Origin: a virus
Reading direction: 5' to 3' (one strand)
Virus record (IMG/VR): IMGVR_UViG_3300032668_000063
Span: 1 to 38,382 of that record
DNA length: 38,382 bases
Positions 3,680-35,496 of this stretch are shown here, in pieces. Both the position numbers and the translations under genes were made by a program. Position 1 is the stretch's first letter, and every line of letters begins with the position of its first letter. The notes under the pieces are model-generated. The model saw only the letters and a program-made list of their open reading frames with translations. It searched no databases and was not told the origin of the DNA.

Positions 3680-4123
3680 ATGAATTACTTACAATTATTA
3701 ACTATGGATACTGGTTTATATAAAGTAGACCACTTAACTTTAAATACATTAGTTCATTTAATAAAAACTTGTGACTCATCAGGAGTCACAAGTGATTATG
3801 TTAAAAAAATACCATTAGATTTATGGTTTACCGATTTTTGGGATAGATTAGGTTCTAAAATAGATTATATAACAATTTATATAACTACTCGTGTAGTATA
3901 TAATACTGGTGAAGTTATCGAAACAAAAGCAGGTCATACATATTATGATACTTTAGATGATTATGAATATTATATAAATGGTATAAATGGATATTTATGT
4001 CTTTATTCTATAAATAAAATAATTAATTTAGAAACTATGCATGTTTGTTATGAGGTGAGAGATTGTGTAATAACTAATCATAGTATTCAAAGAGATTTTA
4101 CATTAAATAGGATTCTTAATTAA
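3680..4123 (+). CDS. Hypothetical protein with shared C-terminal tail
   Basis: A 147-residue protein with no recognised domain. The middle is rich in Tyr, Ile and Thr with predicted beta character (DYITIYITTRVVYNTGEV). It ends QRDFTLNRILN, a short version of the C-terminal tail. The coding sequence contains an 11-bp perfect inverted repeat with a 5-base loop at 3767-3793, and its last codons form one arm of a 30-base palindromic terminator. Confidence 0.65.
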   Translation: MNYLQLLTMDTGLYKVDHLTLNTLVHLIKTCDSSGVTSDYVKKIPLDLWFTDFWDRLGSKIDYITIYITTRVVYNTGEVIETKAGHTYYDTLDDYEYYINGINGYLCLYSINKIINLETMHVCYEVRDCVITNHSIQRDFTLNRILN

Positions 4124-4134
4124 GAATCCTATTT
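4105..4134. terminator. Bidirectional terminator (30-base perfect palindrome)
   Basis: A perfect palindrome centred on TTAATTAA, with arms AAATAGGATTCTTAA and TTAAGAATCCTATTT. It lies between two convergent genes and includes the stop codon of the rightward one. Runs of T follow on both strands, so it can terminate in both directions. Confidence 0.75.
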
Positions 4135-4686
4135 TTGTATTGAAAATTCATCATTAGAAGTTCCGTCTTCACCTCCATACTCTTTATCAAAATCTAGTGT
4201 TAATTTAATAAGATAATCTTCATTGAAATCTTCTACATCAATAGTTTTTGTGATTTCACCAATTAAATCAACAGTATCATCATTTTTATATTTTTTAAAT
4301 TTGATATAAACTTTTTTGATTTTAGTATCATCAAAATCTTCTTCTTGATTATCATTAATAGCATCTTTTAAGTCAAAGAAAAGAGCTAAATCATAGATAA
4401 ACTTATCATCAGAATATTTAATTTTAAGATTATCTCTTGTAAAAGAGTATTTAGATATTTCACAAGTAGCTAAAGTTAGACCCATGTCTTTTAATGACAT
4501 TTGTCCTTTTTTCTTTTTTAGAGATTTTTCTCTTTCTTCAAAAGAATCAACTTTTTCAGTTTCTTCTTCAGTACTAAACATATTTTGTACCTTTTTTTGT
4601 AATTTCAATAAGGCATTTGAAATATATTCTTCAGGAGATTCTCCTAAATTTTCTTTGATAAATTCATAAAATTTTTGTATCTTCAT
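4129..4686 (-). CDS. Hypothetical protein with capsid-targeting-like N-terminus
   Basis: A 185-residue, highly charged protein starting MKIQKFYEFIKENLGESPEE. The first dozen residues fit the MK-x-x-x-x-Y/F-x-x-F-x-E pattern that recurs in this window and resembles the leader that targets T4 internal proteins into the prohead. A Lys/Glu-rich linker (about 40-65) follows. A mixed alpha/beta domain (about 68-175) ends in an acidic tail. No enzyme motif is visible. A prohead core or internal protein is plausible but unproven. Confidence 0.6.
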   Translation of the reverse strand: MKIQKFYEFIKENLGESPEEYISNALLKLQKKVQNMFSTEEETEKVDSFEEREKSLKKKKGQMSLKDMGLTLATCEISKYSFTRDNLKIKYSDDKFIYDLALFFDLKDAINDNQEEDFDDTKIKKVYIKFKKYKNDDTVDLIGEITKTIDVEDFNEDYLIKLTLDFDKEYGGEDGTSNDEFSIQK

Positions 4687-4690
4687 AATA

Positions 4691-4704
4691 TATATATTAA
4701 TTAA
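4691..4704 (-). promoter_or_regulatory. TTAATATATA-type promoter motif
   Basis: Read leftward, TTAATTAATATATA ends about five bases before the ATG at 4686. The same AT-rich motif precedes at least six other leftward genes. It is probably a phage-specific promoter element, leaving a very short leader. Confidence 0.35.
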
Positions 4705-4737
4705 ACAAACTTAAAAATAAAAAAATAATAAAATTAT

Positions 4738-5427
4738 ATGAATATAGTATTTTTTACAGGATCTGGATTATCAGCAGAATCAGGGCTTCAAACTTTTAGA
4801 GATGCTGATGGTTATTGGAACAAATATAATGTGGAAGATATAGCTACAATTGAAGGATTTCGCAGAAATCCTGAATTAGTTAATAACTTCTTTAACGAAT
4901 ATAGAACTCTAATAAAAAACTCTCAACCAAATTATGCTCATATCCAAATTGCTAATTTTATAAAAAATAGTAAAAATTCATGTTCTATTATTACACAAAA
5001 TGTGGATAATTTTTTAGAACGTGCCGGTGTAAAAGATGATGACATTTATCACTTACACGGACAAATAACTATGGCTAAAACTATAAATAGAGGATTTAGT
5101 TTTCATATCGGTTATGATAATATCAAAACAACTGATAGAGGGGAAGATGGTAGTGGGATAAGACCTGATATAGTATTTTTCGGAGAAATGCCACATTATT
5201 TAGAAGAAGCAGCTGAATTGATTAGCGAATGTGATGTATTGGTAGTTATTGGAACTTCTTTACAAGTTTATCCTGCGGCAGGTTTAATAGATTTATTACA
5301 ACCAAGAAGTAGAGGTATTGTATTAGATCCAAATTGTGATGAATTGGATTTAGGTTCTAAATGGGATAAGATTGCTAAAAAAGCAACAGAAGGAATTGAT
5401 GATGTTATTGATTTAATTAATATTTAA
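4738..5427 (+). CDS. Sirtuin (Sir2-family NAD+-dependent deacylase)
   Basis: A 229-residue protein covering the whole sirtuin catalytic core. The NAD-binding motif is TGSGLSAESGLQTFRDADG (7-25). TQNVDNFLERAG (86-97) and HLHG with the catalytic His107 follow, then RPDIVFFGE (142-150) and GTSLQVYPAAGL (172-183). The zinc-ribbon cysteines of canonical bacterial CobB are missing; the region 118-140 has none. Sirtuins consume NAD+ to remove acyl groups from lysine or, in some families, hydrolyse NAD+. In a phage it could modify host proteins or affect the NAD+ pool that several defence systems use. It starts divergently from the gene at 4129 and is followed two bases later by a small protein. Confidence 0.92.
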   Translation: MNIVFFTGSGLSAESGLQTFRDADGYWNKYNVEDIATIEGFRRNPELVNNFFNEYRTLIKNSQPNYAHIQIANFIKNSKNSCSIITQNVDNFLERAGVKDDDIYHLHGQITMAKTINRGFSFHIGYDNIKTTDRGEDGSGIRPDIVFFGEMPHYLEEAAELISECDVLVVIGTSLQVYPAAGLIDLLQPRSRGIVLDPNCDELDLGSKWDKIAKKATEGIDDVIDLINI

Positions 5428-7896: not shown

Positions 7897-8048
7897 TTAA
7901 TATATATTATTTTTTTATCTTCTAAATACTTTTTTAATAAGTTTTCTATCAACTTAGACATATTTATTGAATTTTCATTACAATAAATAACAAATTCTTC
8001 TGATACTTTTTTATCAATCGTAAAATTTTTTCTTATTTTCTTATCCAT
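7893..8048 (-). CDS. Ribbon-helix-helix (Arc/CopG-like) DNA-binding protein
   Basis: A 51-residue protein beginning MDKKIRKNFTIDKKVSEEF. It follows the ribbon-helix-helix plan: a short basic beta strand (KIRKNFTI), helix 1 (KKVSEEFVIYCNEN), a turn with the usual Asn-Met-Ser (INMSKLIENLL) and helix 2 ending KKYLED. Such proteins dimerise to place the strand in the DNA major groove, often as autorepressors. It overlaps the GIY-YIG gene upstream by 8 bases and the metallopeptidase gene downstream by 4. It is probably a regulator of this three-gene operon or of neighbouring promoters. Confidence 0.8.
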   Translation of the reverse strand: MDKKIRKNFTIDKKVSEEFVIYCNENSINMSKLIENLLKKYLEDKKIIYIK

Positions 8049-8850
8049 TTTTCTTATTTATTTTCTTTTGCCAATGCCCATTTTTTGGTCTATCTACATT
8101 ATGTTTTATTAAACATAATTGTATTCGTCTAACCGTTATATTTATTAATTTAGAAATTTCTGGGATTGGCATCTTCCAAATTAAAGGTTTTATAGTATTT
8201 AATAATTCACTATCATCTTTAAAATAATTTTCAGTTCTTTTCTTCTTTCCCGCTAAAAATTCATTCTCATAAAAATCTTTTAGATCTAATTCTAAATATA
8301 GTTGTCTTTTTTCTTCAAAGTTAATAAAACAATCTTTCCCATATAAATATAAACAAACTTTATCATATATTTCTGCTGCTTCTATTTCTGAATTAGCATA
8401 TTTTATTTTTTTGATAATTTTATTATCAAATTTACATACCCAACTTTTTTTATTTTTACGATAACTAACTCCTTTATATATACTACTTGATTTATTGGTA
8501 GGTTTATACTCAGTTCCTAATCTTATATTAGATAAAGAAATTTTTTGTTCTTCCATCATAAACTTATTTTCTCCACATCCTCTTATATTATACCCATAAG
8601 GTTTATATGAGTTATATAACTCAGCATAATAACATTCTTTTTCATTTAATAAATCTATATTAGCTATATTATTTTCAAGTATCTCTACTTCAAAATTTTC
8701 TAATCCATTTTTATTTACAGAATTTTTTAAAATCTCATTATGAGTATAAACCCACCATTTACCATTTTTATATCTTTCATTAAAAGGATTAATTGATTGC
8801 CCTATATAAGATTTGTTGTTTATTTTATTAAATATTCTATATACTATCAT
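8041..8850 (-). CDS. GIY-YIG homing endonuclease with AP2/NUMOD-type DNA-binding modules
   Basis: A 269-residue protein. The N-terminal nuclease shows YRIFNKINNKSYIGQS (4-19), the GIY-YIG signature, with the expected Arg after NPFNER. A NUMOD3-like stretch (KISLSNIRLG) follows, then an AP2-type domain (about 120-175: YKGVSYRKNKKSWVCKF with AAEIYDK). The C-terminus has a helix-turn-helix-like segment (about 215-255). This is the usual build of free-standing phage homing endonucleases, which cut a related genome at an empty site to spread their own gene. Here it leads an operon with a DNA-binding regulator. Confidence 0.88.
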   Translation of the reverse strand: MIVYRIFNKINNKSYIGQSINPFNERYKNGKWWVYTHNEILKNSVNKNGLENFEVEILENNIANIDLLNEKECYYAELYNSYKPYGYNIRGCGENKFMMEEQKISLSNIRLGTEYKPTNKSSSIYKGVSYRKNKKSWVCKFDNKIIKKIKYANSEIEAAEIYDKVCLYLYGKDCFINFEEKRQLYLELDLKDFYENEFLAGKKKRTENYFKDDSELLNTIKPLIWKMPIPEISKLINITVRRIQLCLIKHNVDRPKNGHWQKKINKKNG

Positions 8851-10402: not shown

Positions 10403-10909
10403 ATGCCATATTATGTTGTTTCAAATAATAAGATAATAACTGACTTAGCAAGAAGTTCAGTATTTAGAACCGATTTAGGATATTCTGCTACATTACCAAA
10501 TCCTAACGGTATGAGAAAAATTAATGGTAATGATGAGTTCGCTGCCTCATATAATACATTTTACAAAACTACTATATCTAAAAAAGGTAGAATAGGTGAT
10601 ATTCATTTTTATATAGATGGCGGCATCAATGAAAATGTTTTAGCATTTTATAAAAACTATGAAGAATTTATTTACGAGTATAATCCAAATTATATTAAAG
10701 ATTTTGGTATAGATGCTTATGTAGGTCATTTACTTAAGAAAGTAGATCAAGATTATTCTATTAGAACTAAAAAAGATATACCTGTTCAAGAGGAAGTTGT
10801 GGTTAAACCACAAGGTAATGCGGATATTTTAGTAAAAAATCCTGGAGCAGTTACTTATGCTGATTTGGCAAAATATTTAGAAGAAAAGAGAAAAAAAAGT
10901 ATAGAATAA
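10403..10909 (+). CDS. Hypothetical protein, possibly virion-associated
   Basis: A 168-residue protein. Residues 1-95 look beta-rich and 96-168 contain a Pro/Val/Lys linker (PVQEEVVVKPQGNADILVK) and a short helix (YADLAKYLEEKRKK). It is preceded by TATATAATATATAAATA (10373-10389), the phage-type promoter motif. Its last codons form half of a palindromic terminator, so it ends in the same KSIE as the convergent gene. No family is recognised. The linker followed by a short terminal helix is common in phage structural proteins. Confidence 0.6.
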   Translation: MPYYVVSNNKIITDLARSSVFRTDLGYSATLPNPNGMRKINGNDEFAASYNTFYKTTISKKGRIGDIHFYIDGGINENVLAFYKNYEEFIYEYNPNYIKDFGIDAYVGHLLKKVDQDYSIRTKKDIPVQEEVVVKPQGNADILVKNPGAVTYADLAKYLEEKRKKSIE

Positions 10910-10927
10910 TTTATTCTATACTTTTTT
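10893..10927. terminator. Bidirectional terminator between convergent genes
   Basis: AAAAAAGTATAGAATAA is followed one base later by its exact reverse complement. It contains both stop codons and gives a stem flanked by A and T runs on both strands. Because both genes read it in the same frame relative to their ends, both proteins finish KSIE. Confidence 0.75.
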
Positions 10928-15985: not shown

Positions 15986-16018
15986 AAAAACCCCCACATT
16001 TTTTGTGGGGGTTTTTTT
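15986..16018 (+). terminator. Rho-independent terminator after dnaK
   Basis: The stem CCCCCACA (15991-15998) pairs with TGTGGGGG (16004-16011) around a T5 loop. It is flanked by A5 and followed by T7. It is by far the most GC-rich element near here and a textbook terminator. Confidence 0.93.
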
Positions 16019-16030
16019 ATATATAGGTAT

Positions 16031-16867
16031 ATGAAACATATACTTAAATATAAATTATTTGAAGATCTCTATACTGAATTTTTAACAGAAGAAGAAGTGA
16101 AAAATTTTTTTAGTAATCATTTAAATAGTGATAGATTAGAAAATTTTATGAATGAATATAATTATCCATTTTTTCCAATTATCCCTAATATAGGATATAA
16201 TCATGATATTGATAAATGTGAATATATATTAACTTATAAATTTATTAAAAACAATACAGAAACTATAATTAATTATACAATAGATTATAAACTTAGTGCA
16301 AGTATAATTTATACAATGTCTATACAAGTAAATCATACTAATGATTACGATATATATAGATTAATTGATAAAGATACAAAGGGAGTTTTATATAAAACTA
16401 CTAATATATTTTCACCAAATATAGGAAAAGATAAATTACTAAATCAAATGGAGTTTGAAAAAACGAGACTTAAATTTTTTAGACCTCAATTAAGAAATAC
16501 TGATGAAGGTAGTATAGATTTTATAAATATTAAAACATTTTTAATTGATTTAAAACTAATAAAAATATTAGAAAAATATAAATCTAATTTATCTCCATTA
16601 GATACAAAAATAAATATTAATGATAGAGAATATTACAATTTGATAAACAATATAGATTTAACAAATTTTCGAATCCAAAAAAGAAATAATGATTTGATAT
16701 ATTTTGATTATTGTGATGTTTATGATTTTTTAAGTAAAATGAGTTCTTCAAATGAAACTCATACAGAATTACATAAACAATTTATGATTCATGAGCAATA
16801 TTTATATAAAATAGTTAAATTATATAAATTAATTAAAAAAGAAGTAGAAGATGAATTTAATAACTAA
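16031..16867 (+). CDS. Tandem paralogue 1: leader-bearing, HEQY-ending protein
   Basis: A 278-residue protein and the first of four tandem relatives. The N-terminus MKHILKYKLFEDLYTEFLTE matches the leader pattern; the C-terminus has IHEQYLYKIVKLYKLIKKEV. The middle is Tyr/Asn/Ile-rich with a beta-like core containing YPFFPIIP, a motif echoed by YPFYPL in copy 2. I recognise no enzyme motif. The shared leader suggests prohead targeting, and tandem families of internal head proteins are known in T4-like phages. It begins 13 bases after the dnaK terminator and overlaps copy 2 by 17 bases. Confidence 0.7.
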   Translation: MKHILKYKLFEDLYTEFLTEEEVKNFFSNHLNSDRLENFMNEYNYPFFPIIPNIGYNHDIDKCEYILTYKFIKNNTETIINYTIDYKLSASIIYTMSIQVNHTNDYDIYRLIDKDTKGVLYKTTNIFSPNIGKDKLLNQMEFEKTRLKFFRPQLRNTDEGSIDFINIKTFLIDLKLIKILEKYKSNLSPLDTKININDREYYNLINNIDLTNFRIQKRNNDLIYFDYCDVYDFLSKMSSSNETHTELHKQFMIHEQYLYKIVKLYKLIKKEVEDEFNN

Positions 16868-17684
16868 ATATAAATTATTTGAAAATCAAAATACAATGAT
16901 TCTTACGGAAGATATTATTAAATCTATTTTGGAGAAAGAACTTTTTACTCCAGAAGTTATTGAATATTTTGATTATAATTATTATCCTTTTTATCCATTA
17001 TCTTCTAAATATGATTATTCTTATGATAAAAAAGATGATAAACATTTATTACATTATGAATTTGAAAATACTAATTTAGGTGTAATAACCACTATAAATT
17101 TTAATATTCGTGATTTTTCTAGTAAAATGCCTTATTTTAAAGTTTATTTATATATAAATGTGGAGTTTAAAGAAGATAAAAATCTATTAAAAACTTCATC
17201 CGTAATATATCATTCTAATAGCATATATAATGCTTATGGAGGAGATGATATATTTAAGTCAACAAAAATAGGTAAAATTTATAAAGATAAACAAGATAAA
17301 ACTCTTATTACTCAAATAAAACAAAGTTTAAAGGAAAAAATTAAAGAAAATGTTTTTAAATATGGTCCAGAACATCTTAGTATTAAAGAAATAGTTATTT
17401 GTAATGAGTTTATCAAAAAAATTGAAGAATTTTCAAAAACTATGTATATACAAGATGTAACTGAATTAAATTATTATCCTAATAAAAAAGATTATAAATT
17501 AATTGGATGGGATGATAATGTTTTAAAAACTTCTAATCCTTGGTCTTATGCTTATGGAAATAATATAAAATTATACTTTTCAAAATTTAATAGAACTTTT
17601 ATAGTTCATGAACAATATATTTATAAGTTGAAAAAAATCTATGATAGGATAAAAAAAGAAGTTGATAATGAATTTAATAACTAA
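16851..17684 (+). CDS. Tandem paralogue 2: leader-bearing, HEQY-ending protein
   Basis: A 277-residue protein starting MNLITKYKLFENQNTMILTE and ending with VHEQYIYKLKKIYDRIKKEV then DNEFNN, so it is closest to copy 1. The N-terminal YYPFYPL motif also matches copy 1. Its start lies inside the end of copy 1, and the same 34-base junction sequence (ATGAATTTAATAAC...) is found again where copy 2 meets copy 3. This shows how recently the array expanded or was homogenised. The function is unknown. Confidence 0.7.
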   Translation: MNLITKYKLFENQNTMILTEDIIKSILEKELFTPEVIEYFDYNYYPFYPLSSKYDYSYDKKDDKHLLHYEFENTNLGVITTINFNIRDFSSKMPYFKVYLYINVEFKEDKNLLKTSSVIYHSNSIYNAYGGDDIFKSTKIGKIYKDKQDKTLITQIKQSLKEKIKENVFKYGPEHLSIKEIVICNEFIKKIEEFSKTMYIQDVTELNYYPNKKDYKLIGWDDNVLKTSNPWSYAYGNNIKLYFSKFNRTFIVHEQYIYKLKKIYDRIKKEVDNEFNN

Positions 17685-18396
17685 ATATAAATTATTTGAA
17701 AGTAGAGAAGTAAATAAAGAGAGCATTGAAGAATTAGCAAAAATATATCTACTTAATAAAGATTTTTATGATTATTTTAAGTCAAATGGAGTTGAATTAA
17801 ATTTTACTACAGATATAGCACTTAAAACTCCTACTAATGAATTTTGGTTAAAAATTACTTATCAAGGAGATAAAGATTCAAGATTAACAATAAATATGTC
17901 TAAATTTAATGCGATGAATTTATTTGAAAATCTCTTAAATTTTAATATATTATATAATGGATATACATTATATCAAAGTTTTATTCAAGTAGAATTTACT
18001 AAAAATAATTTTGATATTTATGATAATATAAAAGATTTCTTTATTAATTCACATAGAGAAATTTTATCAACCCCTTTTATAGGAACAAAAAAGGATGTTG
18101 ATAATTTAGAACAATTAATGATGTTACTTTATGATACTAAAAAATATCCTGTTTATTTAAGTAAAGATGGGGTACAAAAAGTTAGAGAAATATCTGATAA
18201 TCCAAATTATACAAATGATCTTCCTGATGAATTAAAATTTTTAAAAAATATAAAATACTTAACTTGTTATTATAGTGATAAAGAGAGTACAATATTTTTA
18301 TATGCTAAGTTTGATCATGGAACTGAATTAATCCAAATACACGAACAATATGCCAATAATGTATATAAAATGTATAAAAAAATAGCTAATAAGTAA
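17668..18396 (+). CDS. Tandem paralogue 3: leader-bearing, HEQY-ending protein
   Basis: A 242-residue protein from ATG 17668. The frame could open six bases earlier at a TTG, but the paralogues fix MNLITKYKLFESRE as the start. It ends IHEQYANNVYKMYKKIANK. The body has diverged from copies 1 and 2 and shares mainly the ends. The stop overlaps the next ATG by one base (TAATG). Confidence 0.7.
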   Translation: MNLITKYKLFESREVNKESIEELAKIYLLNKDFYDYFKSNGVELNFTTDIALKTPTNEFWLKITYQGDKDSRLTINMSKFNAMNLFENLLNFNILYNGYTLYQSFIQVEFTKNNFDIYDNIKDFFINSHREILSTPFIGTKKDVDNLEQLMMLLYDTKKYPVYLSKDGVQKVREISDNPNYTNDLPDELKFLKNIKYLTCYYSDKESTIFLYAKFDHGTELIQIHEQYANNVYKMYKKIANK

Positions 18397-19307
18397 TGAA
18401 ATATATTAAAACATATAATGAAAGTAGAGAGGAATTAACTTCTGAGGAAGGTAAAGAATTTTTAGATATAGTTAGACAGAAATTACCAGAAAAAGTTAAT
18501 AGATATATGTCTTTAATTGTAAATAAAGGTCTAGATGCTTCTAAAAAAGATTTTGAATTAAATGATCCTGATGAAGTTAAAAGAAAAAAGAAAATTGAGG
18601 ATAGAATTTTCTTACAAAAGAAGAAAAAAAATAAACTAACAGATTATGAATTTGATATATTAATAGATAAATATATAAAAACAGAAGATTGGAAAGAATG
18701 GATAAAAAAATGTGGATACCCTGATATTGGTAATTTTCCTATATTTAAGTCAAAAATAAGCCTCAAAAAAGATGAATATGAAATAGAGTATAAAAATAAT
18801 GATCAATTTTTTTCATTTTTAAAATTTAAAATTTTAAAATTCAACGATAAGATTGAAATTAATTGTAATTACTCAGTTAAGTTATATCAATATTCAAATT
18901 ATCAATGTTATTTCTTAACATTTAATTTAGAAAAAGAATATGATAGTATCAATTTAGAAGAATCAATTATTATTTTTTTAGAAAAATTTAAAGAAGAAGT
19001 TTATGAAAAAAATGGTTTAACAAAAATAGATGTAGAAGATATTAAAAATTTCGAAATTAAATTAAAAAATGAATCTTATATAACTTCTATGTCTAGTAGT
19101 GAATTTTTAGATATATTCAAATTAAAATTTAATAATATTTTAACTTTTCAAAAAGAATTTTCATTTTTAATGAAAATCCCACTTAGTAGTGTTTACTATG
19201 ATGGAAATTATATTTATATCCGTATTTTAGAAAACAATGTTTTTAAATTTCATGAACAATATGCCCATAAAGTATATAAAATATATACAAAATTAAAAGC
19301 ATCTTAA
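18396..19307 (+). CDS. Tandem paralogue 4: leader-bearing, HEQY-ending protein
   Basis: A 303-residue protein, the most divergent of the four, starting MKYIKTYNESREELTSEE with a shorter leader. It has an extra charged helical segment (about 45-90: KRKKKIEDR, QKKKKNKLTDYEF) before the shared core. It ends FHEQYAHKVYKIYTKLKAS. It includes KCGYPDIGNFPIF, which aligns with the YPFFPI motif of copy 1. Its stop lies in the palindromic terminator that also ends the convergent gene. Confidence 0.68.
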   Translation: MKYIKTYNESREELTSEEGKEFLDIVRQKLPEKVNRYMSLIVNKGLDASKKDFELNDPDEVKRKKKIEDRIFLQKKKKNKLTDYEFDILIDKYIKTEDWKEWIKKCGYPDIGNFPIFKSKISLKKDEYEIEYKNNDQFFSFLKFKILKFNDKIEINCNYSVKLYQYSNYQCYFLTFNLEKEYDSINLEESIIIFLEKFKEEVYEKNGLTKIDVEDIKNFEIKLKNESYITSMSSSEFLDIFKLKFNNILTFQKEFSFLMKIPLSSVYYDGNYIYIRILENNVFKFHEQYAHKVYKIYTKLKAS

Positions 19308-19328
19308 CTATCTAAGATGCTTTTAATT
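19291..19328. terminator. Bidirectional terminator (16-bp perfect stem)
   Basis: AATTAAAAGCATCTTA, a six-base loop, then its exact reverse complement. It covers the last codons of both convergent genes, which overlap by four bases. T runs follow on each strand. Confidence 0.8.
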
Positions 19329-19699
19329 TTTAAGTCCCTTGCAATATATTTTAAACTCTCTATTTGATAAACGTCTGTTTCATTCATCCTAACTACATCA
19401 AATATAAGAATAGTAATATTACTTTTATTATTAATATGTTTTAAATATGTTTTACTTAAAACTAAACACTTTATATCATCCTCATTAAATAAGACTATTG
19501 TAGTATCTTCATAATTTAATCTATTAAGATCTCTTAGTAAATCCATATTAACTTTAATAGTATCTACTATTATATTTAGTTCATGTTGAAAATATAACAT
19601 ATGATTTTTATCTCCAACATCATGATAACTTATTATTTTATAAGAATAAATTGGATAAATTACACCATTATCTAAAATCAAAATTTTATTATACATCAT
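19304..19699 (-). CDS. Hypothetical protein with shared C-terminal tail
   Basis: A 131-residue protein with beta-like strands (KILILDNGVIYPIYSY, NITILIFDVVRM) and a helical end finishing ARDLKIKSILDS. It starts 11 bases inside the end of the upstream gene and shares its tail, so the two form another tandem tail-bearing pair. Two adjacent ATG codons are possible starts. No known domain is recognised. Confidence 0.62.
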   Translation of the reverse strand: MMYNKILILDNGVIYPIYSYKIISYHDVGDKNHMLYFQHELNIIVDTIKVNMDLLRDLNRLNYEDTTIVLFNEDDIKCLVLSKTYLKHINNKSNITILIFDVVRMNETDVYQIESLKYIARDLKIKSILDS

Positions 19700-20075: not shown

Positions 20076-21438
20076 ATCTTGTTATTATCGCTAATTTAAT
20101 AGCAGGGTCTAATGTTGGTTTAAGTTCAATGAATTTTTCATTAGTAATTTCTTCAATAAATTGAGCACTCTTAAGATTAATTTTACATACCCAATCAACT
20201 CTTCTAACTTCATATTTAGAATTGATTATATAAGCTTTTTCAGCATTTTCTTTGAAAATATATTCACCATAATATTCACTATATACACAATCATTATTAT
20301 GAACATATTTACTTATATAAGGGTCAAATCTAATATCATCATGATCATCAGGATATATACCTCTATATCTTTCTGAACCTACAGAAACTTCTATAGTATC
20401 ATCTCTATATAACCAATCTTGTAATCTATCACTCCATATAGCATCACTTTCTGCTATTGTAGTTTGATAATAATCAGAATGTTTCCTTAATTGCCATTTT
20501 GTATATGAACCATTAGTACTTTCTAATTTATAATAACCCCTCTCATCAGGAGCATAATTTTGAATTATACCTGTTGTAGGATTATAAAACTTAAATGTAT
20601 CAACATACGGGTATGAATCATATTCATTTATTTCTAATTGAAAACCGACTTTTGCGTCATATCTTTTTTCATTTACTACAAATGAAAATTCATCAGAATA
20701 ACTATTCTTATATTTTCTAGCCCAACCATTTTCTTTAGCATACTCATGAAATTTTAGAATATCACTTGGTTTATTGGTATAAACCCTATCCATCATATAT
20801 TCAAAACTAAATTCATCACCTGCATAGTCAATATGCCATATAAGGGCACGACCAACTAATAAATTATCTCTTTTTAAGATAAGCATCTGACATTTAGGGT
20901 TTTTAACATAAATATTAAAGAAAGGTTGACATACCTCTTTTTTCATACACGAGTTTCCTAAATCTCCACAATTACTATAATATTTATAGTCGTTATACCA
21001 ATAACGAATATCTTCACCACTAATTAACTGAAACTCATCATTAATATTTTGTTTAGATTTTACTAAATTAACAAAATCTTCTACTTCTTTAGTAGTGTAT
21101 TTATCAGGGAATAGTTGATTGATAAATCTTCCAATTTTTAATTGGTTTCTTGATTTTGTCCATATTCCATAAGTTGAATCTGAATTACTCATATCGTGAT
21201 ACCAAAAATTTTCTAAAGAATCCCAATCATTTAAGTCTCGTCTTCTTTGATCTTTTAATATTTTTTCAACTTTATCTGCGGGAGAAAATGACAAATATCC
21301 TTCTGTATCTAACTCAATACAGGTCATATTAATATCAATTAAAGAATTTTCTTTATTAAGAATTTCTTGAGAAATTTTATTTTCTGTCAACTTTTGAAAG
21401 AAAGTTCTTAAAATAGGTGAATAGAATAGTTTATACAT
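20068..21438 (-). CDS. Large conserved-looking phage protein, unknown function
   Basis: A 456-residue protein. A helical N-terminal region (1-130) leads to a core around 150-260 with a cysteine cluster (NCGDLGNSCMKKEVC) followed by MLILKRDNLLVGRALIWHID and YMMDRVYT. The C-terminal third (about 300-430) has repeated Tyr/Asp-rich turns (WSDRLQDWLYRDD; VYSEYYGEYIF). The 'GRALIW ... MDR-x-Y' combination looks like a recurrent unassigned phage protein, but I cannot name the family. It heads a three-gene leftward operon with two tail-bearing small proteins. Confidence 0.65.
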   Translation of the reverse strand: MYKLFYSPILRTFFQKLTENKISQEILNKENSLIDINMTCIELDTEGYLSFSPADKVEKILKDQRRRDLNDWDSLENFWYHDMSNSDSTYGIWTKSRNQLKIGRFINQLFPDKYTTKEVEDFVNLVKSKQNINDEFQLISGEDIRYWYNDYKYYSNCGDLGNSCMKKEVCQPFFNIYVKNPKCQMLILKRDNLLVGRALIWHIDYAGDEFSFEYMMDRVYTNKPSDILKFHEYAKENGWARKYKNSYSDEFSFVVNEKRYDAKVGFQLEINEYDSYPYVDTFKFYNPTTGIIQNYAPDERGYYKLESTNGSYTKWQLRKHSDYYQTTIAESDAIWSDRLQDWLYRDDTIEVSVGSERYRGIYPDDHDDIRFDPYISKYVHNNDCVYSEYYGEYIFKENAEKAYIINSKYEVRRVDWVCKINLKSAQFIEEITNEKFIELKPTLDPAIKLAIITRYD

Positions 21439-21497
21439 ATTTTTTTTATTTATGTAAATATAAGAATAATTATTCTAAAAAAAAATTTTTTTCAACG

Positions 21498-21845
21498 ATG
21501 AAAAAATCAAATATATACTTACTAACAGCTATTATTGATGATATAAAAATATATAAAATTGGAATAACAAAAAATGATATTTCTGTAAGATTACGTGCAT
21601 TACAAACAGGAAATCCATATAAAATAAGTATAGTTAATAGTTTTCAATCAAAATGGGCTTCTAAAGTTGAAAATTCTTTACATTCATATTTTAAAAAAAA
21701 TAATGTATTAAATGAATGGTTTATTCTTAGTGATGAAGAAGTTGGTTTATTTACTGAGTTATGTCAAAAAACAGAAAATAATTTACAACTTTTAGAAGAT
21801 AATAATCTATTTATACAAGGAAACGGAGGGATAAAAAATATATAA
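21498..21845 (+). CDS. GIY-YIG/T5orf172-like (MUG113) domain protein
   Basis: The ATG at 21498 gives 115 residues starting MKKSNIYLLTAIIDDIKIYK. Upstream in-frame codons overlap the divergent promoter and look non-coding. YLLTA...IYKIGITKNDISVRLRALQTGNP is the start of the T5orf172/MUG113 branch of the GIY-YIG superfamily. The conserved Glu follows in VENSLHSYFKKN and NEWF ends the core. Such single-domain proteins are common in phages. Nuclease activity is not established for all of them. Confidence 0.82.
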   Translation: MKKSNIYLLTAIIDDIKIYKIGITKNDISVRLRALQTGNPYKISIVNSFQSKWASKVENSLHSYFKKNNVLNEWFILSDEEVGLFTELCQKTENNLQLLEDNNLFIQGNGGIKNI

Positions 21846-21849
21846 GAGT

Positions 21850-22098
21850 ATGAAAGAAATGGCAATTAGAGATTATATCTCAAAAGTAAATTGGAAAGCC
21901 AATTGGAATTATAAAGTTATCGAAGAAGATATGAGACGTTTTTTAGGAGAAAGACCAAGTCTTGAGCCTGAATATAGAAAAGATGTGATTATCAATGAAG
22001 TAACTGGCGAAGCAAAAGAAATCTCTAAATTAGAGAAAATTAGTGTGATTTTTACTGATTTGGATAATAGAATTAAAAAATTAACATTTTTAATATGA
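21850..22098 (+). CDS. Small hypothetical protein
   Basis: An 82-residue protein starting MKEMAIRDYISKVNWKANWN, with a second possible start four codons in. It contains a Trp-rich N-terminal helix and a strand-like end (KISVIFTDLDNRIKKLTF). It follows the GIY-YIG-like gene by four bases and overlaps the next gene by four. No family is recognised. Confidence 0.55.
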   Translation: MKEMAIRDYISKVNWKANWNYKVIEEDMRRFLGERPSLEPEYRKDVIINEVTGEAKEISKLEKISVIFTDLDNRIKKLTFLI

Positions 22099-22331
22099 TA
22101 AAATTAGAAGATTATATATTCAATATTGAAAAATTATTTTCTATGCAAAATGATATAGACAAAAAATTTATTCAAGGATTATATCATGAATTATTAGGAG
22201 AATTTCGTTCTATTCCACATAATAATCCTATTAATTATACTTTTATTTTTAATACATTATATTATGGTGGATTTTTAATTAACAAAACTCAGTTTGATAG
22301 AGAAAAAGTATTTGAAGCTTTAGATGTGTAA
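22095..22331 (+). CDS. Small hypothetical protein
   Basis: A 78-residue helical protein starting MIKLEDYIFNIEKLFSMQND and ending FDREKVFEALDV. The end weakly resembles the shared C-terminal tail (RE, then hydrophobic, then L-D-V) but lacks the IL core. It overlaps both neighbours (4 and 8 bases), so translation is probably coupled. Confidence 0.55.
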   Translation: MIKLEDYIFNIEKLFSMQNDIDKKFIQGLYHELLGEFRSIPHNNPINYTFIFNTLYYGGFLINKTQFDREKVFEALDV

Positions 22332-22602
22332 ATTTGAACCTATAATTTTATTTTATAAAGGAAGATATGAAAAAGGAATCATAGTAAATATTTCAATTAA
22401 ATTTGAAGATATTTACTATGATTCCTTATACTATTATGATAACGAATATATGTTATTAACAGTTCCTGATGATTTAGAAATAAAATTAGGTTATTCTATT
22501 AATGAAGATGATGATTATCTACAACTAATGTTAGAACTAAAGTCTTTAGTTGATCCATTTGATCAAATTATAGAATCACTTCCTATTCTTGAAGATATAT
22601 AA
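22324..22602 (+). CDS. Small acidic hypothetical protein containing a 19-bp palindrome
   Basis: A 92-residue acidic, Tyr-rich protein (ISIKFEDIYYDSLYYYD). It ends ESLPILEDI, which keeps only the last part of the tail pattern. The coding sequence contains a perfect 19-bp inverted repeat at 22373-22427. Its 3' end overlaps the convergent deoxyribosyltransferase-like gene by 40 bases, with a 7-bp TTGAAGA/TCTTCAA stem at 22589-22610 as the only terminator candidate. Confidence 0.55.
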   Translation: MCKFEPIILFYKGRYEKGIIVNISIKFEDIYYDSLYYYDNEYMLLTVPDDLEIKLGYSINEDDDYLQLMLELKSLVDPFDQIIESLPILEDI

Positions 22603-23045
22603 TTCTTCAAATCCTCAACTGTTTCAAACATAGGAATATTTTCTCTATAACATTCTATTTCTACATTTCCTCTTCTACTAAAAGTCTTTGGACAAACTAC
22701 TAACATTTTACCACTTGAGGAATATTTACCAAATTCTAATAAACTTATAGGCGATATAGTTAATGGGAGAAAATTCATAATAATTAAATCTGCTTCTTTT
22801 AAGGAATCTAATTCCCAATTAACTTGGTGATTAAAATTAGAATTTTCAAAGGTCATTGCCCATGATGAGTCCCAAGCTTTTCTTCTTGGATTAAATACTT
22901 CAAAATTTAACTCATTAAAATAATTTGCTAAATCTTCTTGCCAATCATACGAATTAGCGTTATCAACTTCAATTGTTCCTGCTAAGAATACACTTTTCTT
23001 ACTTAAGTCTCTTAACTTTACATTTACTGGGGGTAGGTATATCAT
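22563..23045 (-). CDS. Nucleoside 2-deoxyribosyltransferase-like protein
   Basis: A 160-residue protein with a Rossmann-like start, SVFLAGTIEVDNANSYDWQ (about 18-36). FNPRRKAWDSSW, VNWELDSLKEADLIIMNF, SPISLLEFGKY and VVCPKTFSRRGNVEIECYR follow. This is the pattern of the Nuc_deoxyrib_tr2 family, which exchanges or cleaves N-glycosidic bonds of deoxynucleosides. The catalytic Glu is probably in SLLEFGKY. In a phage it may serve nucleotide salvage. The start overlaps the upstream membrane-protein gene by four bases. Confidence 0.8.
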   Translation of the reverse strand: MIYLPPVNVKLRDLSKKSVFLAGTIEVDNANSYDWQEDLANYFNELNFEVFNPRRKAWDSSWAMTFENSNFNHQVNWELDSLKEADLIIMNFLPLTISPISLLEFGKYSSSGKMLVVCPKTFSRRGNVEIECYRENIPMFETVEDLKNYISSRIGSDSII

Positions 23046-24549: not shown

Positions 24550-25722
24550 TTGTTAAAAAGTTTCAAATATAAATTATTACCAAATCAAGAACAAACCATT
24601 TTGTTGAATAAGCACTTTGGTTGTGTTAGATTTATATATAATCATTATTTAAATGAAAGAAAAAAAGAATATGAAATTAATAAGCAATCTCTAAATTATT
24701 TAGATAACGCTAAAGACTTAACATTTTTAAAGAAAAAAGAAGAATTTTTTTTCTTAAAAGAAGTTTTAACAGCTTCACTTCAACATTCATTAAAACATTT
24801 AGAGGGAGCATATAATGGATTTTTTAAAGGTAGAACTAGTTTTCCTAAATTTAAGTCTAAGCATGATAAAAATTCCTTTCATATTCCACAATATATTTCT
24901 GTTGAAAAATCATATCTAAATATTCCTAAATTCAAGGAAGGTATAAAAATGATTCAAGATAGAAAGTTTAATGGAGAGATAAGACAATGCACTATATCTA
25001 AAACACCAACTAATGAATATTTTGTTTCAATTTTAGTAGAAACTACCCATAAGAAATTAGAAAAGACAGGATTATTTGTGGGTATAGATTTAGGAATTAA
25101 AGATTTTGTTATAACTTCTGATGGGTTTAAATATAAAAATAATAGATATACTAAAAAATATTCTACTAAATTAAAAGTAAATCAACAACATTTAAGTAGA
25201 AAAATTAAAGGAAGTAATAGATATAACAAACAACGCTTAAAGGTAGCTAAGATTTATAAGAAGATAACCAATTCTCGTAAAGATAATTTACATAAAGTTT
25301 CTACTGATTTAATTAAAAATTATGATACTATATTTCTTGAAGACCTCAACATTAAAGGAATGATTAAAAATCATAAATTATCTAAACATATTCAGGATTG
25401 CTCTTGGGGCATGTTTATTAATTTTCTTGAATATAAAGCAACATGGAATGATAAACAAGTTATTAAAATTGATAGATTCTTTCCTTCATCCAAGACATGT
25501 AGTAAATGTGGGTATATTAATCAAAATCTAAAATTAGATTTACGTGAATGGACTTGCCCTTCTTGTAAAACTAAACATGATAGAGATTTTAACGCCGCTA
25601 CTAATATAAAACAAGAAGGGTTTAAAATAATATCGTCAGGGACTGACGATTACAGACATGGAGATCAAATAAGACCATCTATAGATGGCACAATCTATGA
25701 AATGTCTAAAAAGTTATCCTAA
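24550..25722 (+). CDS. tnpB: TnpB, RNA-guided nuclease of IS200/IS605 elements
   Basis: A 390-residue TnpB, full length. The RuvC catalytic residues are D180 in GIDLGIKDF, E264 in FLEDLNIKG and the Asp of HDRDFNAATNI (343-353). The zinc finger is C317/C320/C336/C339 (CSKC...CPSC). The N-terminal region has the family's opening (KYKLLPNQEQ, then FIYNHYLNERKK). TnpB uses an RNA made from the right end of its element to cut DNA at a site next to a short motif, which helps keep the element in place. The start is TTG at 24550, supported by the LKSFKYKLLPN opening. All active-site residues are intact, so it may be functional. Confidence 0.93.
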   Translation: MLKSFKYKLLPNQEQTILLNKHFGCVRFIYNHYLNERKKEYEINKQSLNYLDNAKDLTFLKKKEEFFFLKEVLTASLQHSLKHLEGAYNGFFKGRTSFPKFKSKHDKNSFHIPQYISVEKSYLNIPKFKEGIKMIQDRKFNGEIRQCTISKTPTNEYFVSILVETTHKKLEKTGLFVGIDLGIKDFVITSDGFKYKNNRYTKKYSTKLKVNQQHLSRKIKGSNRYNKQRLKVAKIYKKITNSRKDNLHKVSTDLIKNYDTIFLEDLNIKGMIKNHKLSKHIQDCSWGMFINFLEYKATWNDKQVIKIDRFFPSSKTCSKCGYINQNLKLDLREWTCPSCKTKHDRDFNAATNIKQEGFKIISSGTDDYRHGDQIRPSIDGTIYEMSKKLS

Positions 25723-28800: not shown

Positions 28801-30917
28801 CATTTAATACAGCGGTAGGTGCTCAAGCATTACAAAAAATGACTGGAGGGTATAATGTTGCTGTTGGTTATGCTTGTTTAATAAACGCTACAAATGGTAG
28901 AAATACCGCAGTTGGTGCTCAAGCAGGACAAAGTAATACTGGAGGTGGTTCTAATGTTATATTTGGTAATGCTGCTTTACAATCAAATACAACAGGATCT
29001 AATAATGTTGCTATTGGATATAATTCAGGTGTTTTAACATCAGGAGGAACAATAAGTAATACAGTTATTAATAATAGTATTATTATAGGTTCAAGTGCTT
29101 ACCCATTAGCAAGTAATGATACAAATGAAATTGTTATTGGTTATTCAGCAGTTGGTAATGGTTCAAATACTATAACAATTGGTAATACAAGTTCATTATA
29201 TTCTCAAATATACGGAAATCTTAGTTTAGGATATACTTCTTCTGCTACATCATCTACATATAAATTACAAGTAGCAGGAACTTCATATTTTAACGCACAA
29301 GCAAACTTTATTGTAAATGGTGCTGCTTCTTCACCAATATTTGTACAAAATTTAAATACACAAGGAGTTGCAGCAGTTAATTTTTATGATAGTTCAAGTA
29401 ATAATACAGGTGCTTTTGGTTACGCTGGTAGTGCTTATTCAGGAACAAATTTACAAGATAAAGTTTATTTATATCATACAAAAGATTTTATCATAACCCC
29501 TGATGGTAGTACAGTAGAATTAAAAATTGTTAAAACAAACGGTAATGTTTTAATAGGAACTGCTTCTGATAATGGTACTAAATTACAAGTAGTTGGAACA
29601 TCTTCAATCACAGGTAATTTAATTTTCACATCAACTGCATCTTCTCCTTATATTAAATTTAATAACTTATTAACAGGAACTCCTAGTTACAACACTTATA
29701 GTAATGGTGCTAAACTTATATTAGCAGATAATATAAGTTCATCTAGTACAGGATACGCTATTGGTATAGATGCTGGAACAATGTGGTTTGGCACAGATTT
29801 AGCAGGGGATGGTTTCCAATGGTACGGTGGAACTCGTAGTTTAGCAACTTTAATTTCATCATCTGGTTTAACATTAAATAATTTAGGATCTGTATCTAGT
29901 GCATCATTAAATATAAATGGTATAACAAGTGGTATATTAGCAGGAATAAATGTTACTGGTACAAATACAAAAGGTGGCACAGGTTATTTAGATTTCTTAA
30001 CAGCTACTAATACTTATGGAAGTGGTACAAATCCAAATAAATTCTTTAGAGTAAATAATGTTGGAGGTTTAGAAATTCTTAATAGCGTATATTCAGCTAC
30101 TGTTTTATCAGTAGCTGATAATGGTATATTATATGTCGGTGGTGGGAATGTAGCAACATCTGCAAATACTGATGGTACTTCTAATTATTTATCATTCAAT
30201 GTTAATAACTCTCAAATATATGATGATGGTAATTTTCACATACATTCAAGAAATCCTAATCAAGGTATGTGGATCAATACAAATAATGCTCCTTTATACT
30301 TATTAACACAAGCTCCTGTAAGTGGCGGTACAGCAGGAACTGGTATAGGTATTGGTTCATCTAATATAACAGCTTTTGTTAGTATAAATGCTTCAAGAAG
30401 TTATGTTGTATCAAGTTATGGTTATCTATCAACAAGTGGGGCAGGTACAGGCGGGAGTTCAGGTGTAGTACCATTTAGTTTATATGCAAGTGGTCGTATT
30501 CAATGTCCTGAGTTTGATGCTACATCAGATGAAAGAATGAAAAATATATTAGGAGAAATAGAATTAAATGATGCTATTAAATTAGTTAATAATATAAAAC
30601 CAATTAAATTTAATTGGAAAGATAATGAAGACACAGGATTAAAAACAGGTTATTCGGCTCAACAAGTTGCTAAAATAGGTTTCGACCATTTAATAGGACA
30701 AATACCTAATGATAAATTAGAAAAAACTATTGATGAAGAAGGATTTATGAGCCCTGATAAAGTTCAGTTAACAATGAACTATGACCAAGTAATTCCATAT
30801 CATAGTGTAGTAATTAAAAATCTTTTAGAAAAATTAGATAACTTAGAAAAAACAGTTAATGATCTAACATTACAAAATGCTGAATTAAATAAAAAAATTG
30901 ATAATCTTAGTAAATAA
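25854..30917 (+). CDS. Collagen-like tail fibre with YadA-like repeats and C-terminal S74 chaperone
   Basis: A 1687-residue fibre. The N-terminal module (1-38: [20 protein letters not shown]) is shared with the fibre at 35528 and probably attaches to the baseplate or tail. Short Gly-x-y repeats and a small domain with a [17 protein letters not shown] carbohydrate-binding-like stretch come next. A long collagen-like run follows (about 190-505: [18 protein letters not shown]). Beta-rich shaft segments include YadA-head-like repeats ([18 protein letters not shown]; about 940-1075). The C-terminus is a peptidase S74 intramolecular chaperone: SDERMKN with Ser1558, then TGYSAQQV, ending in a coiled coil. 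S74 domains assist trimerisation and cut themselves off just before the Ser. It overlaps a relic of its own 5' end. Confidence 0.93.
26424..27375 (+). repeat. Collagen-coding tandem repeat tract
   Basis: About 950 bases of nested 9- and 18-base units such as GGTATTCAA and GGTTCTACAGGTGCTACA, encoding G-x-y triplets. The repeats are similar enough at DNA level to allow slippage or unequal recombination, and they leave long open frames in other phases and on the other strand that are artefacts. A related tract lies in the fibre gene at 37260-37590. Confidence 0.9.
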
Positions 30918-30939
30918 ACTAAGATTATCAATCTAAATT
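30897..30939 (+). terminator. Terminator after the large fibre gene
   Basis: ATTGATAATCTTAGT (30897-30911) pairs perfectly with 30918-30932 around loop AAATAA. The stop codon is in the loop, and T-rich sequence follows. Confidence 0.82.
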
Positions 30940-32802: not shown

Positions 32803-33144
32803 TTAACTACCTGATTGCGTTCCACCTGAATTATCAGATGATTGCGTTCCGCTAATAGGTAAATCTGCTAAAGGTAAGGCTATACTTGGATCAGATAAAA
32901 TAGCATTTAATTCCGCCCTTAATGTATCTCCTACTACATCTCCATTTTCATTAATATTTTGAATAACACTAACAAAAAGTGGCATATATTGTATTGGAAC
33001 TGGCATGTTCCCTCTGTCTATTACTTTACCATTTGGTGTAATAATCTCCCAGTAAGTGTTAAAAGTATCTGATGTATAAGGAGGGATTATATCTACTTTC
33101 ATTTTAGTAGCAGTCATTGATTTTGGTTGTATGTTGTAAATCAT
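32803..33144 (-). CDS. Fibre-region protein sharing its N-terminal module with the gene at 35269
   Basis: A 113-residue protein. Residues 1-46 (MIYNIQPKSMTATKMKVDII, then YWEIITPNGKVIDRGN) are identical to those of the gene at 35269. At DNA level 144 bases differ at two positions. After RGN the two diverge completely: here MPVPIQYMPLFVSVIQNINE and a Ser/Gly-rich end follow. A swapped C-terminal part on a constant N-terminus is typical of tail-tip or adhesin modules. The function is otherwise unknown. Confidence 0.7.
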   Translation of the reverse strand: MIYNIQPKSMTATKMKVDIIPPYTSDTFNTYWEIITPNGKVIDRGNMPVPIQYMPLFVSVIQNINENGDVVGDTLRAELNAILSDPSIALPLADLPISGTQSSDNSGGTQSGS

Positions 33145-35268: not shown

Positions 35269-35496
35269 TTATGTTAAACGTATTTGAACAGCATTACCAT
35301 TTCTATATAAACCATATACCGGAACACCTGCTAATGCTGCTGCACTATCACTAGCCGCATTTCCTCTATCTATTACTTTACCATTTGGTGTAATAATCTC
35401 CCAGTAAGTGTTAAAAGTATCTGATGTATAAGGAGGAATTATATCTACTTTCATTTTAGTAGCAGTCATTGATTTTGGTTGTATGTTGTAAATCAT
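35269..35496 (-). CDS. Fibre-region protein sharing its N-terminal module with the gene at 32803
   Basis: A 75-residue protein. Residues 1-46 equal those of the 113-residue protein at 32803; the C-terminus is instead AASDSAAALAGVPVYGLYRN then GNAVQIRLT. The 'VYGLYR-x-G-x-x-x-IR' end is common in small phage tail proteins. The two genes look like one constant module with two alternative ends. Confidence 0.72.
   Translation of the reverse strand: MIYNIQPKSMTATKMKVDIIPPYTSDTFNTYWEIITPNGKVIDRGNAASDSAAALAGVPVYGLYRNGNAVQIRLT

What the first reader, a model, noticed from the sequence alone, without database searches (positions are those of the whole stretch)
22373..22427. Perfect 19-bp inverted repeat inside a coding sequence
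AAGGAATCATAGTAAATAT and its exact reverse complement at 22409-22427 are 17 bases apart, and the loop has a further TTCAA/TTGAA stem. A perfect 19-bp stem within an open frame, not at a gene end, is unlikely by chance even at this AT content. It may be a strong mRNA hairpin, an attenuator or a product of template switching during replication, which is documented for quasi-palindromes in T4.
Basis: seen in the sequence. Interest (0 to 1): 0.5.

Follow-up and report, generated by a model that had tools for sequence, protein, structure and literature searches.

The report
Perfect hairpin inside phage coding sequence
A small gene of a very large bacterial virus contains two mirror-image stretches of DNA, so its message can fold into a long hairpin without breaking the protein; it is real and unusual, but probably a known kind of copying accident at a spot where the protein already makes the DNA nearly symmetrical.

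Summary
22373-22391 and 22409-22427 are perfect 19-bp inverted arms in codons 17-35 of a 92-codon ORF (22324-22602). Shuffles and synonymous resampling never reach 17 bp. In 1.03 Mb of two related huge phages all 27 perfect stems of 15 bp or more lie between genes or at gene edges.

The gene belongs to a syntenic family; 20 to 22 relatives were compared. Both arms encode conserved strands of a predicted beta-hairpin and pair codon to codon. The protein thus imposes a quasi-palindrome: about 9 of 15 pairs expected from the window protein, 15 found (P about 5e-6). No relative has the perfect stem. 8 of 22 have an imperfect hairpin in the same register, with a modest excess of sense-strand pairing. 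That register ranks first of 61, but a control gene reaches a similar folding signal in 4 of 68 windows.

Best reading: a protein-imposed quasi-palindrome perfected in this lineage, most simply by template switching (inferred, not shown). Selection for an mRNA hairpin is the main rival; an antisense terminator is less likely.

The parts
22324..22602 (+). ORF of 92 codons that carries the hairpin; conserved huge-phage family of unknown function, predicted beta-strands plus helices
   Evidence: no Pfam or PHROGs hit
22373..22391 (+). left arm AAGGAATCATAGTAAATAT, codons 17-23 (K G I I V N I), mostly in predicted strand 18-27
22392..22408 (+). loop TTCAATTAAATTTGAAG with inner 5-bp stem TTCAA/TTGAA, hexaloop and one bulged G
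22409..22427 (+). right arm ATATTTACTATGATTCCTT, codons 29-35 (D I Y Y D S L), mostly in predicted strand 30-38
22370..22374 (-). run of five T on the - strand at the foot of the stem (AAAAA on +); basis of the antisense-terminator rival
21850..22098 (+). conserved neighbour gene used to find syntenic relatives
22563..23045 (-). convergent neighbour (Nuc_deoxyri_tr2) whose end overlaps the ORF by 40 bp

Best explanation
The hairpin is an in-frame quasi-palindrome that the protein itself sets up and that has become perfect in this phage lineage. Shown: strand 2 of the predicted beta-sheet (G-I-I-V, NTN-rich codons) and strand 3 (Y-Y-D/E, NAN-rich codons) lie at a distance where codon 18 faces 34, 19 faces 33, 20 faces 32, 21 faces 31 and 22 faces 30, so much of the pairing comes free with the conserved protein, and the window's codon choices complete it. 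Inferred: one arm was rewritten as a copy of the other by template switching during replication (quasi-palindrome correction), which can make several codon changes in one step and yields Watson-Crick-only arms; the result stayed because the protein was still acceptable. A hairpin in the mRNA follows, without a shown function. The direction of copying cannot be told.
For: Stem beyond chance and beyond synonymous choice (P 4.7e-6 for the five codon pairs). The protein alone already gives 9.2-9.4 of 15 pairs. All 19 pairs are Watson-Crick with no G-U, in a window of 26% GC. Rare codons ATC (6.9%), TAC (10%) and TCC (2.8%) are each the exact complement of a commoner codon in the other arm. The alignment has no gap at the hairpin, so it is not an insertion. 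None of 22 relatives has the perfect stem, and Watson-Crick pairing in 20 of them (124 of 300 cells) is close to that expected from protein and codon use (118; 66 of 500 resamplings reach it), so the perfect stem is lineage-specific. The mechanism has precedents in coding DNA (PMC8604942: abstract and one results section read; PMC6649704: abstract and passages; PMC7202029: passages, which cite Ripley 1982 for T4 rIIB).
Against: No close relative was found in the collections searched (best 43% identity in a segment), so the unmodified ancestral DNA cannot be seen and the mutation itself is not shown. Neither arm is clearly foreign. No interior perfect stem of 15 bp or more was found in 1.03 Mb of related phages, so if template switching makes them they are very rare. 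Relatives show an excess of sense-strand G-U pairing in the same register (95 seen, 80.7 expected; A-C 27 against 30.3), which DNA-level copying alone does not predict.
Confidence: 0.45

Rival explanations
1. A functional mRNA hairpin under selection on the sense strand: an in-frame element at codons 17-35 that tunes translation, mRNA processing (a 19-24 bp duplex could suit an RNase III-like enzyme, recalled) or co-translational folding of the beta-hairpin, or is an operator bound by a protein.
For: 20 relatives fold more stably here than synonymous resamples (mean z -1.42 at codon 16, 9 of 20 below -1.64; windows starting at codons 23-65 give -0.54 to 0.06). With within-gene codon permutation 12 of 13 clade representatives are negative (mean -1.48), and in 10 of 13 the sense strand is lower than the antisense (mean -0.88). 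The window's register ranks first of 61 for Watson-Crick plus G-U pairing in 22 relatives, in 15 clade representatives and without the two strongest (z 4.4, 3.1, 3.1). L006 and L017 show the same bulge and hexaloop architecture.
Against: 14 of 22 relatives have less than one expected pair in that register, among them sisters of carriers; one of the 14, L008, pairs in adjacent registers. In L017, the strongest carrier, the antisense fold is the stronger one (-5.28 against -3.72). In a control gene 4 of 68 windows reach a mean z of -1.42 or lower. The neighbour gene gives register z values up to 6.9 with the same method, so the z of 6.1 is not a probability; without L017 and L006 the register is second by that method. 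Selection on RNA would not need 19 Watson-Crick pairs without a G-U.
Confidence: 0.28
2. An intrinsic terminator of the leftward genes (24472 to 22563) placed inside the opposing + gene, because the two convergent genes overlap at their ends and leave no room for one.
For: On the - strand the stem is followed by TTTCAT (T5 with the last two arm bases) and meets my own loose terminator pattern (loop up to 20); on the + strand it does not. No terminator-like stem is listed at the 22563-22602 junction. Convergent relatives L019, L020 and L022 carry a stem with 3 or more G-C pairs at the gene end instead.
Against: The standard scan, with loops of 3-8, does not list it (16 of 16 hits shown). Three of the six convergent relatives (L004, L006, L031) lack such a stem at the junction, and two co-directional ones (L018, L023) have one, so stem and arrangement are not tied. 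In 176 convergent pairs of two related phages terminator-like stems sit at the junction (49 in 20 kb, at 36 of 176) and hardly inside the opposing gene (4 antisense, 2 sense in 91 kb). Hairpins in the same register occur in L017, L018, L023, L015, L026 and L029, whose following genes are co-directional. Family G-U bias favours the sense strand. The long stems at convergent junctions of kin have loops of 0-6 nt.
Confidence: 0.1
3. Chance: ordinary codon choice on a protein-imposed quasi-palindrome, noticed because every stem in the window was inspected.
For: The protein supplies most of the pairing.
Against: 0 of 300 synonymous resamplings and 0 of 200 Markov sequences reach 17 bp; no interior stem of 15 bp or more in 1.03 Mb of kin.
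Confidence: 0.12
4. Assembly or amplification artefact (fold-back chimera).
For: The window is an IMG/VR virus record, probably assembled from a metagenome (inference).
Against: The ORF stays open, in register and aligned without gap to relatives through both arms.
Confidence: 0.03

Closest known systems
Quasi-palindrome correction by template switching (T4 rIIB and yeast CYC1, Ripley 1982, as cited in PMC7202029; yeast coding genes, PMC8604942)
   Same: Inverted arms in coding DNA, short spacer, imperfect pairing expected before and perfect pairing after, protein kept in frame
   Different: 19-bp arms against 7-16 bp in the yeast table; here the event is inferred from distant relatives only, with no parent sequence
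Coding palindromes in mitochondrial genes of Nematomorpha (PMC6649704)
   Same: Perfect inverted repeats inside genes, both arms encoding conserved residues
   Different: There numerous repeats, up to 284 bp; here one of 19 bp in a phage gene
Template switching creating RNA hairpins (PMC8794818; abstract, outline and opening text seen)
   Same: A perfect stem could arise in one mutational step
   Different: That study treats RNA genes; here the stem lies in a protein-coding gene and no RNA function is shown
Intrinsic transcription terminators at convergent gene ends
   Same: Stem plus T-run on one strand near a convergent pair
   Different: Inside the opposing gene, about 136 nt past the stop, long loop; the clade puts terminator-like stems at the junction

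Membership tests
Quasi-palindrome template-switch product | Perfect inverted arms where the ancestor had an imperfect repeat at the same place | tested here: inconclusive
   Relatives have partial pairing in the same register (1 to 12 Watson-Crick pairs of 15), but at 43% protein identity or less
Quasi-palindrome template-switch product | Clustered changes confined to one arm, templated by the other | tested here: inconclusive
   Odd residues and rare codons in both arms; summed log10 score -5.97 left, -7.34 right
Quasi-palindrome template-switch product | Changes fall on the branch leading to the perfect repeat | not testable with these tools
   The window branch is very long (9.4 substitutions per codon) and no sister sequence was found
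Coding palindrome (PMC6649704 type) | Perfect inverted repeat inside a gene with both arms encoding conserved sequence | tested here: met
Conserved mRNA structure element | Same structure in relatives beyond protein constraint, with covariation | tested here: inconclusive
   Register first of 61 and G-U excess, but present in 8 of 22 and near the level of a control gene
Intrinsic terminator | Stem followed by a U-run on the transcript it ends | tested here: inconclusive
   Only on the antisense strand, with T5, by my loose pattern; not listed by the standard scan
Intrinsic terminator | Location after a gene end, as in this clade | tested here: not met
   Terminator-like stems of kin sit at junctions, not inside the opposing gene
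Rfam families | Score at or above the gathering cut-off | tested here: not met
   Only MIR5649 at 23.6 and 22.6 bits, cut-off 100

The most novel reading that the evidence does not exclude
A lineage-spanning, in-frame mRNA hairpin in a huge-phage gene family, formed over the codons of a protein beta-hairpin and held in the same codon register by selection on sense-strand pairing, repeatedly renewed by template switching and acting as a regulatory or co-translational folding element.
Probability: 0.2. Interest if true: 0.55.

Novelty: new member of a known kind. Interest (0 to 1): 0.32.

Why it matters
It is a natural case of a long perfect palindrome living inside a conserved gene, and it shows how a protein's own strand pattern (hydrophobic NTN codons facing NAN codons) can set up a quasi-palindrome for replication to perfect. 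If the weak same-register signal in relatives is real, it would link a protein beta-hairpin to an RNA hairpin over the same codons, which can be tested by synonymous recoding. As it stands it is a modest example of a known process.

Tried and rejected
Insertion of a mobile hairpin: rejected, no gap in the protein alignment; an exact 17-mer of the arm hits 11 IMG/VR loci in about four sequence contexts, none with the second arm within 60 nt downstream (best 10 of 17). Conserved structure by Watson-Crick counts alone: not above expectation. Codon-model dating of the event: branch too long, so replaced by a profile times codon-usage score. Frameshift signal: GAA AAA GGA is not a slippery heptamer in frame, and the stem starts at once (inspection, motif recalled). 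Function of the protein: no Pfam or PHROGs hit, no PDB fold at E 0.001 or lower. Searches for closer kin that found none: the protein alone, two neighbouring genes, the protein with L019 (one search returned only L019), and a genome collection scan. Antidiagonal z of 6.1 looked strong until the neighbour-gene control showed similar values; it is not used as a probability.

Rows dropped before counts: L007 and L009 (same protein as L008); L005 (same gene as L004); L021, L024, L025, L028, L030, L032, L033 and all ten of L097-L106 (contigs already used). L107 and L108 entered only. The name Rad50/SMC-like for the downstream ATPase rests on its P-loop start, recalled, from no call. The clade representatives (13 or 15) were picked by me from the tree and the protein alignment.

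Full report
Observation. The two 19-nt arms at 22373-22391 and 22409-22427 are exact reverse complements 17 nt apart. With the inner TTCAA/TTGAA stem, a hexaloop and one bulged G, the RNA folds at -28.3 kcal/mol (+) or -26.8 (-), with 0 of 200 shuffles as low. It is the longest perfect stem in the window; the only other stem of 15 bp or more inside a gene is A/T only. 200 of 200 sequences from a second-order Markov model of the window had longest stems of 11-15 bp. Synonymous resampling of 47 ORFs gave at most 16 bp, once in 300. In 634,780 bases of LR745206 and the first 400,000 of LR756502, with mechanically called ORFs, there are 27 perfect stems of 15 bp or more; 25 are not inside a gene, 2 lie at gene edges, none is interior.

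Context. The window is a 38,382-base virus record, kin to huge phages of more than 600 kb: LR756502 by DNA at 74.5% over about 300 bases, LR745206 and LR756502 by the gene itself (the first weak hit is). The hairpin gene (22324-22602, 92 aa) overlaps the stop of the gene before it. Its neighbour 21850-22098 found 12 IMG/VR loci, and 12 of 12 encode a homologue of the hairpin gene just downstream. A family-profile scan gave 15 loci, 7 of them on the same contigs, and the last scan gave 12, of which two are new, L107 and L108. After removing duplicates 20 relatives, in some, were compared. The best identity to the window is 43% in a segment (L019). Start, frame and both arms align without a gap. 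AlphaFold2 gives a confident model (mean pLDDT 94.5, 19 sequences) with strands 5-15, 18-27, 30-38 and 43-46 and three helices; no PDB match reaches E 0.001.

Why the arms pair. Codons 18-22 (GGA ATC ATA GTA AAT) face codons 34-30 (TCC GAT TAT TAC ATT) exactly codon to codon. The residues are conserved: G18 in 19 of 20 relatives, V21 in 17 of 20, Y32 in 17 of 20 (columns). Hydrophobic NTN codons in strand 2 face NAN codons in strand 3, so the second codon positions tend to pair anyway. From the window's protein and codon usage 9.4 of 15 pairs are expected; 15 are found, P 4.7e-6. Three rare codons (ATC, TAC, TCC) each complement a commoner codon across the stem. The place was chosen because it has the stem, so this P is conditional on that choice; the whole-window tests above are the fair measure of chance.

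Is one arm foreign? Scoring each codon by family profile times codon usage gives summed log10 -5.97 for codons 18-22 and -7.34 for 30-34. At the amino-acid level alone both arms (-0.72, -0.87 per residue) are no worse than the rest of the gene (-0.91), while their codon choice is rarer (-0.47, -0.59 against -0.24). N22 replaces a hydrophobic residue in 20 of 20 relatives; I30 replaces mostly polar ones (V in 2 of 20). The window branch of the codon tree is very long (9.4 substitutions per codon). The direction of any copying stays open.

Is the structure conserved? None of the relatives has the perfect stem. Watson-Crick pairs over the five codon pairs in 20 relatives total 124 of 300, against 118 expected (66 of 500 resamplings reach it). 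One relative, L017, has 12 of 15 (P 1.5e-4; the next lowest of the 20 are 0.013 and 0.015). Counting G-U over 21 pairs in 22 relatives, 287 of 462 pair against 258.6 expected (0 of 2000); G-U is in excess (95 against 80.7), A-C is not (27 against 30.3). Among 61 registers the window's own ranks first in all three sets tried (z 4.4 for 22 relatives, 3.1 for 15 clade representatives, 3.1 without L017 and L006; spread of z over registers 1.2-1.5). By folding, 8 of 22 relatives form 3.6 to 21.8 expected pairs in this register and 14 of 22 less than one; it is first among registers in 15 representatives (z 3.6) and second without L017 and L006. Local folding energy against synonymous resamples is lowest here (mean z -1.20 to -1.42 for windows starting at codons 14-18; 9 of 20 below -1.64 at 16), intermediate just beside it (-0.76, -0.59) and -0.54 to 0.06 further on. 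Under within-gene codon permutation 12 of 13 representatives stay negative (mean -1.48); the antisense mean is -0.88, and the sense strand is lower in 10 of 13, though not in L017. Against this, the downstream ATPase gene of 8 relatives gives mean z -0.47 with 4 of 68 windows at or below -1.42, and the neighbour gene reaches register z of 6.9. I read this as a weak and patchy tendency, roughly a 2-6% event after calibration (my estimate from 1 of 61 and 4 of 68).

Antisense terminator. The - strand reads the stem and then T-rich sequence, and the leftward genes end about 136 nt before it. The + strand has no U-run. The standard terminator scan does not list the hairpin. In 14 of 20 relatives the hairpin gene is followed by a co-directional ATPase gene (in L015 after another ORF, in L008 cut short); in 6 of 20 (L004, L006, L019, L020, L022, L031) by a convergent gene, as in the window. 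L019, L020 and L022 have a G-C-containing stem at the gene end, L004, L006 and L031 do not, and the co-directional L018 and L023 do. Six of the eight carriers of the same-register hairpin are co-directional. In 176 convergent pairs of kin, terminator-like stems cluster at the junction (49 in 20 kb, at 36 of 176) and not inside the opposing gene (4 antisense, 2 sense in 91 kb). This lowers the terminator reading without excluding it.

Verdict. The simplest account is a quasi-palindrome supplied by the protein and made perfect in this lineage, most likely by template switching; that step is inferred. Selection for an mRNA hairpin is the best rival and could have helped keep it. Template switching in coding DNA is reported from yeast (PMC8604942: abstract and the arm-homogenization section), and from E. 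coli and, by citation, T4 (PMC7202029: passages); long coding palindromes are reported from hairworm mitochondria (PMC6649704: abstract and passages). A survey of 118,019 genomes finds inverted repeats concentrated in intergenic regions (PMC13155455: passages). A library search for papers holding template switching, quasi-palindrom and phage genome together found 0; that covers only the held open-licence papers.

Noticed in passing
24550-25722 +: TnpB/Cas12f-like transposon nuclease (OrfB_IS605 and Cas12f1-like_TNB).
   Followed up: no
8041-8850 -: Protein with weak GIY-YIG and AP2 matches, below Pfam cut-offs: perhaps a homing-endonuclease-like gene.
   Followed up: no
21417-21845 +: MUG113/T5orf172 domain gene near the hairpin gene; a homologue sits in the same order in LR745206.
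   Followed up: partly
16031-16867, 16851-17684, 17662-18396 +: Three tandem genes with similar starts (ILKYKLFE / LITKYKLFE), probably paralogues.
   Followed up: no
32803-33144 - and 35269-35496 -: The first 46 residues are the same in two nearby ORFs: a duplicated gene start near fibre-like genes with collagen-like repeats.
   Followed up: no
3767-3793 in ORF 3680-4123 +: A second in-gene hairpin, 11 pairs with 5 G-C, followed by TTTTATT on the - strand; another candidate for an in-gene or antisense element.
   Followed up: no
15986-16016, 19289-19330, 10893-10927, 4105-4134, 30897-30932: Stems at gene ends, several with A/T tracts, terminator-like.
   Followed up: partly
L034-L065 and L066-L085: Many of the long perfect stems at gene ends of both huge phages share an A-tract followed by a CCCA- or CCAC-like core, a likely terminator style of this clade.
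   Followed up: partly
L067:5094-5149: A perfect 28-bp palindrome arm pair (56 nt, no loop) at a divergent junction in LR756502.
   Followed up: no
L008:3456-5256: The downstream ATPase ORF is cut short after 99 codons and another + ORF (3718-5256) follows: perhaps an inserted element.
   Followed up: no
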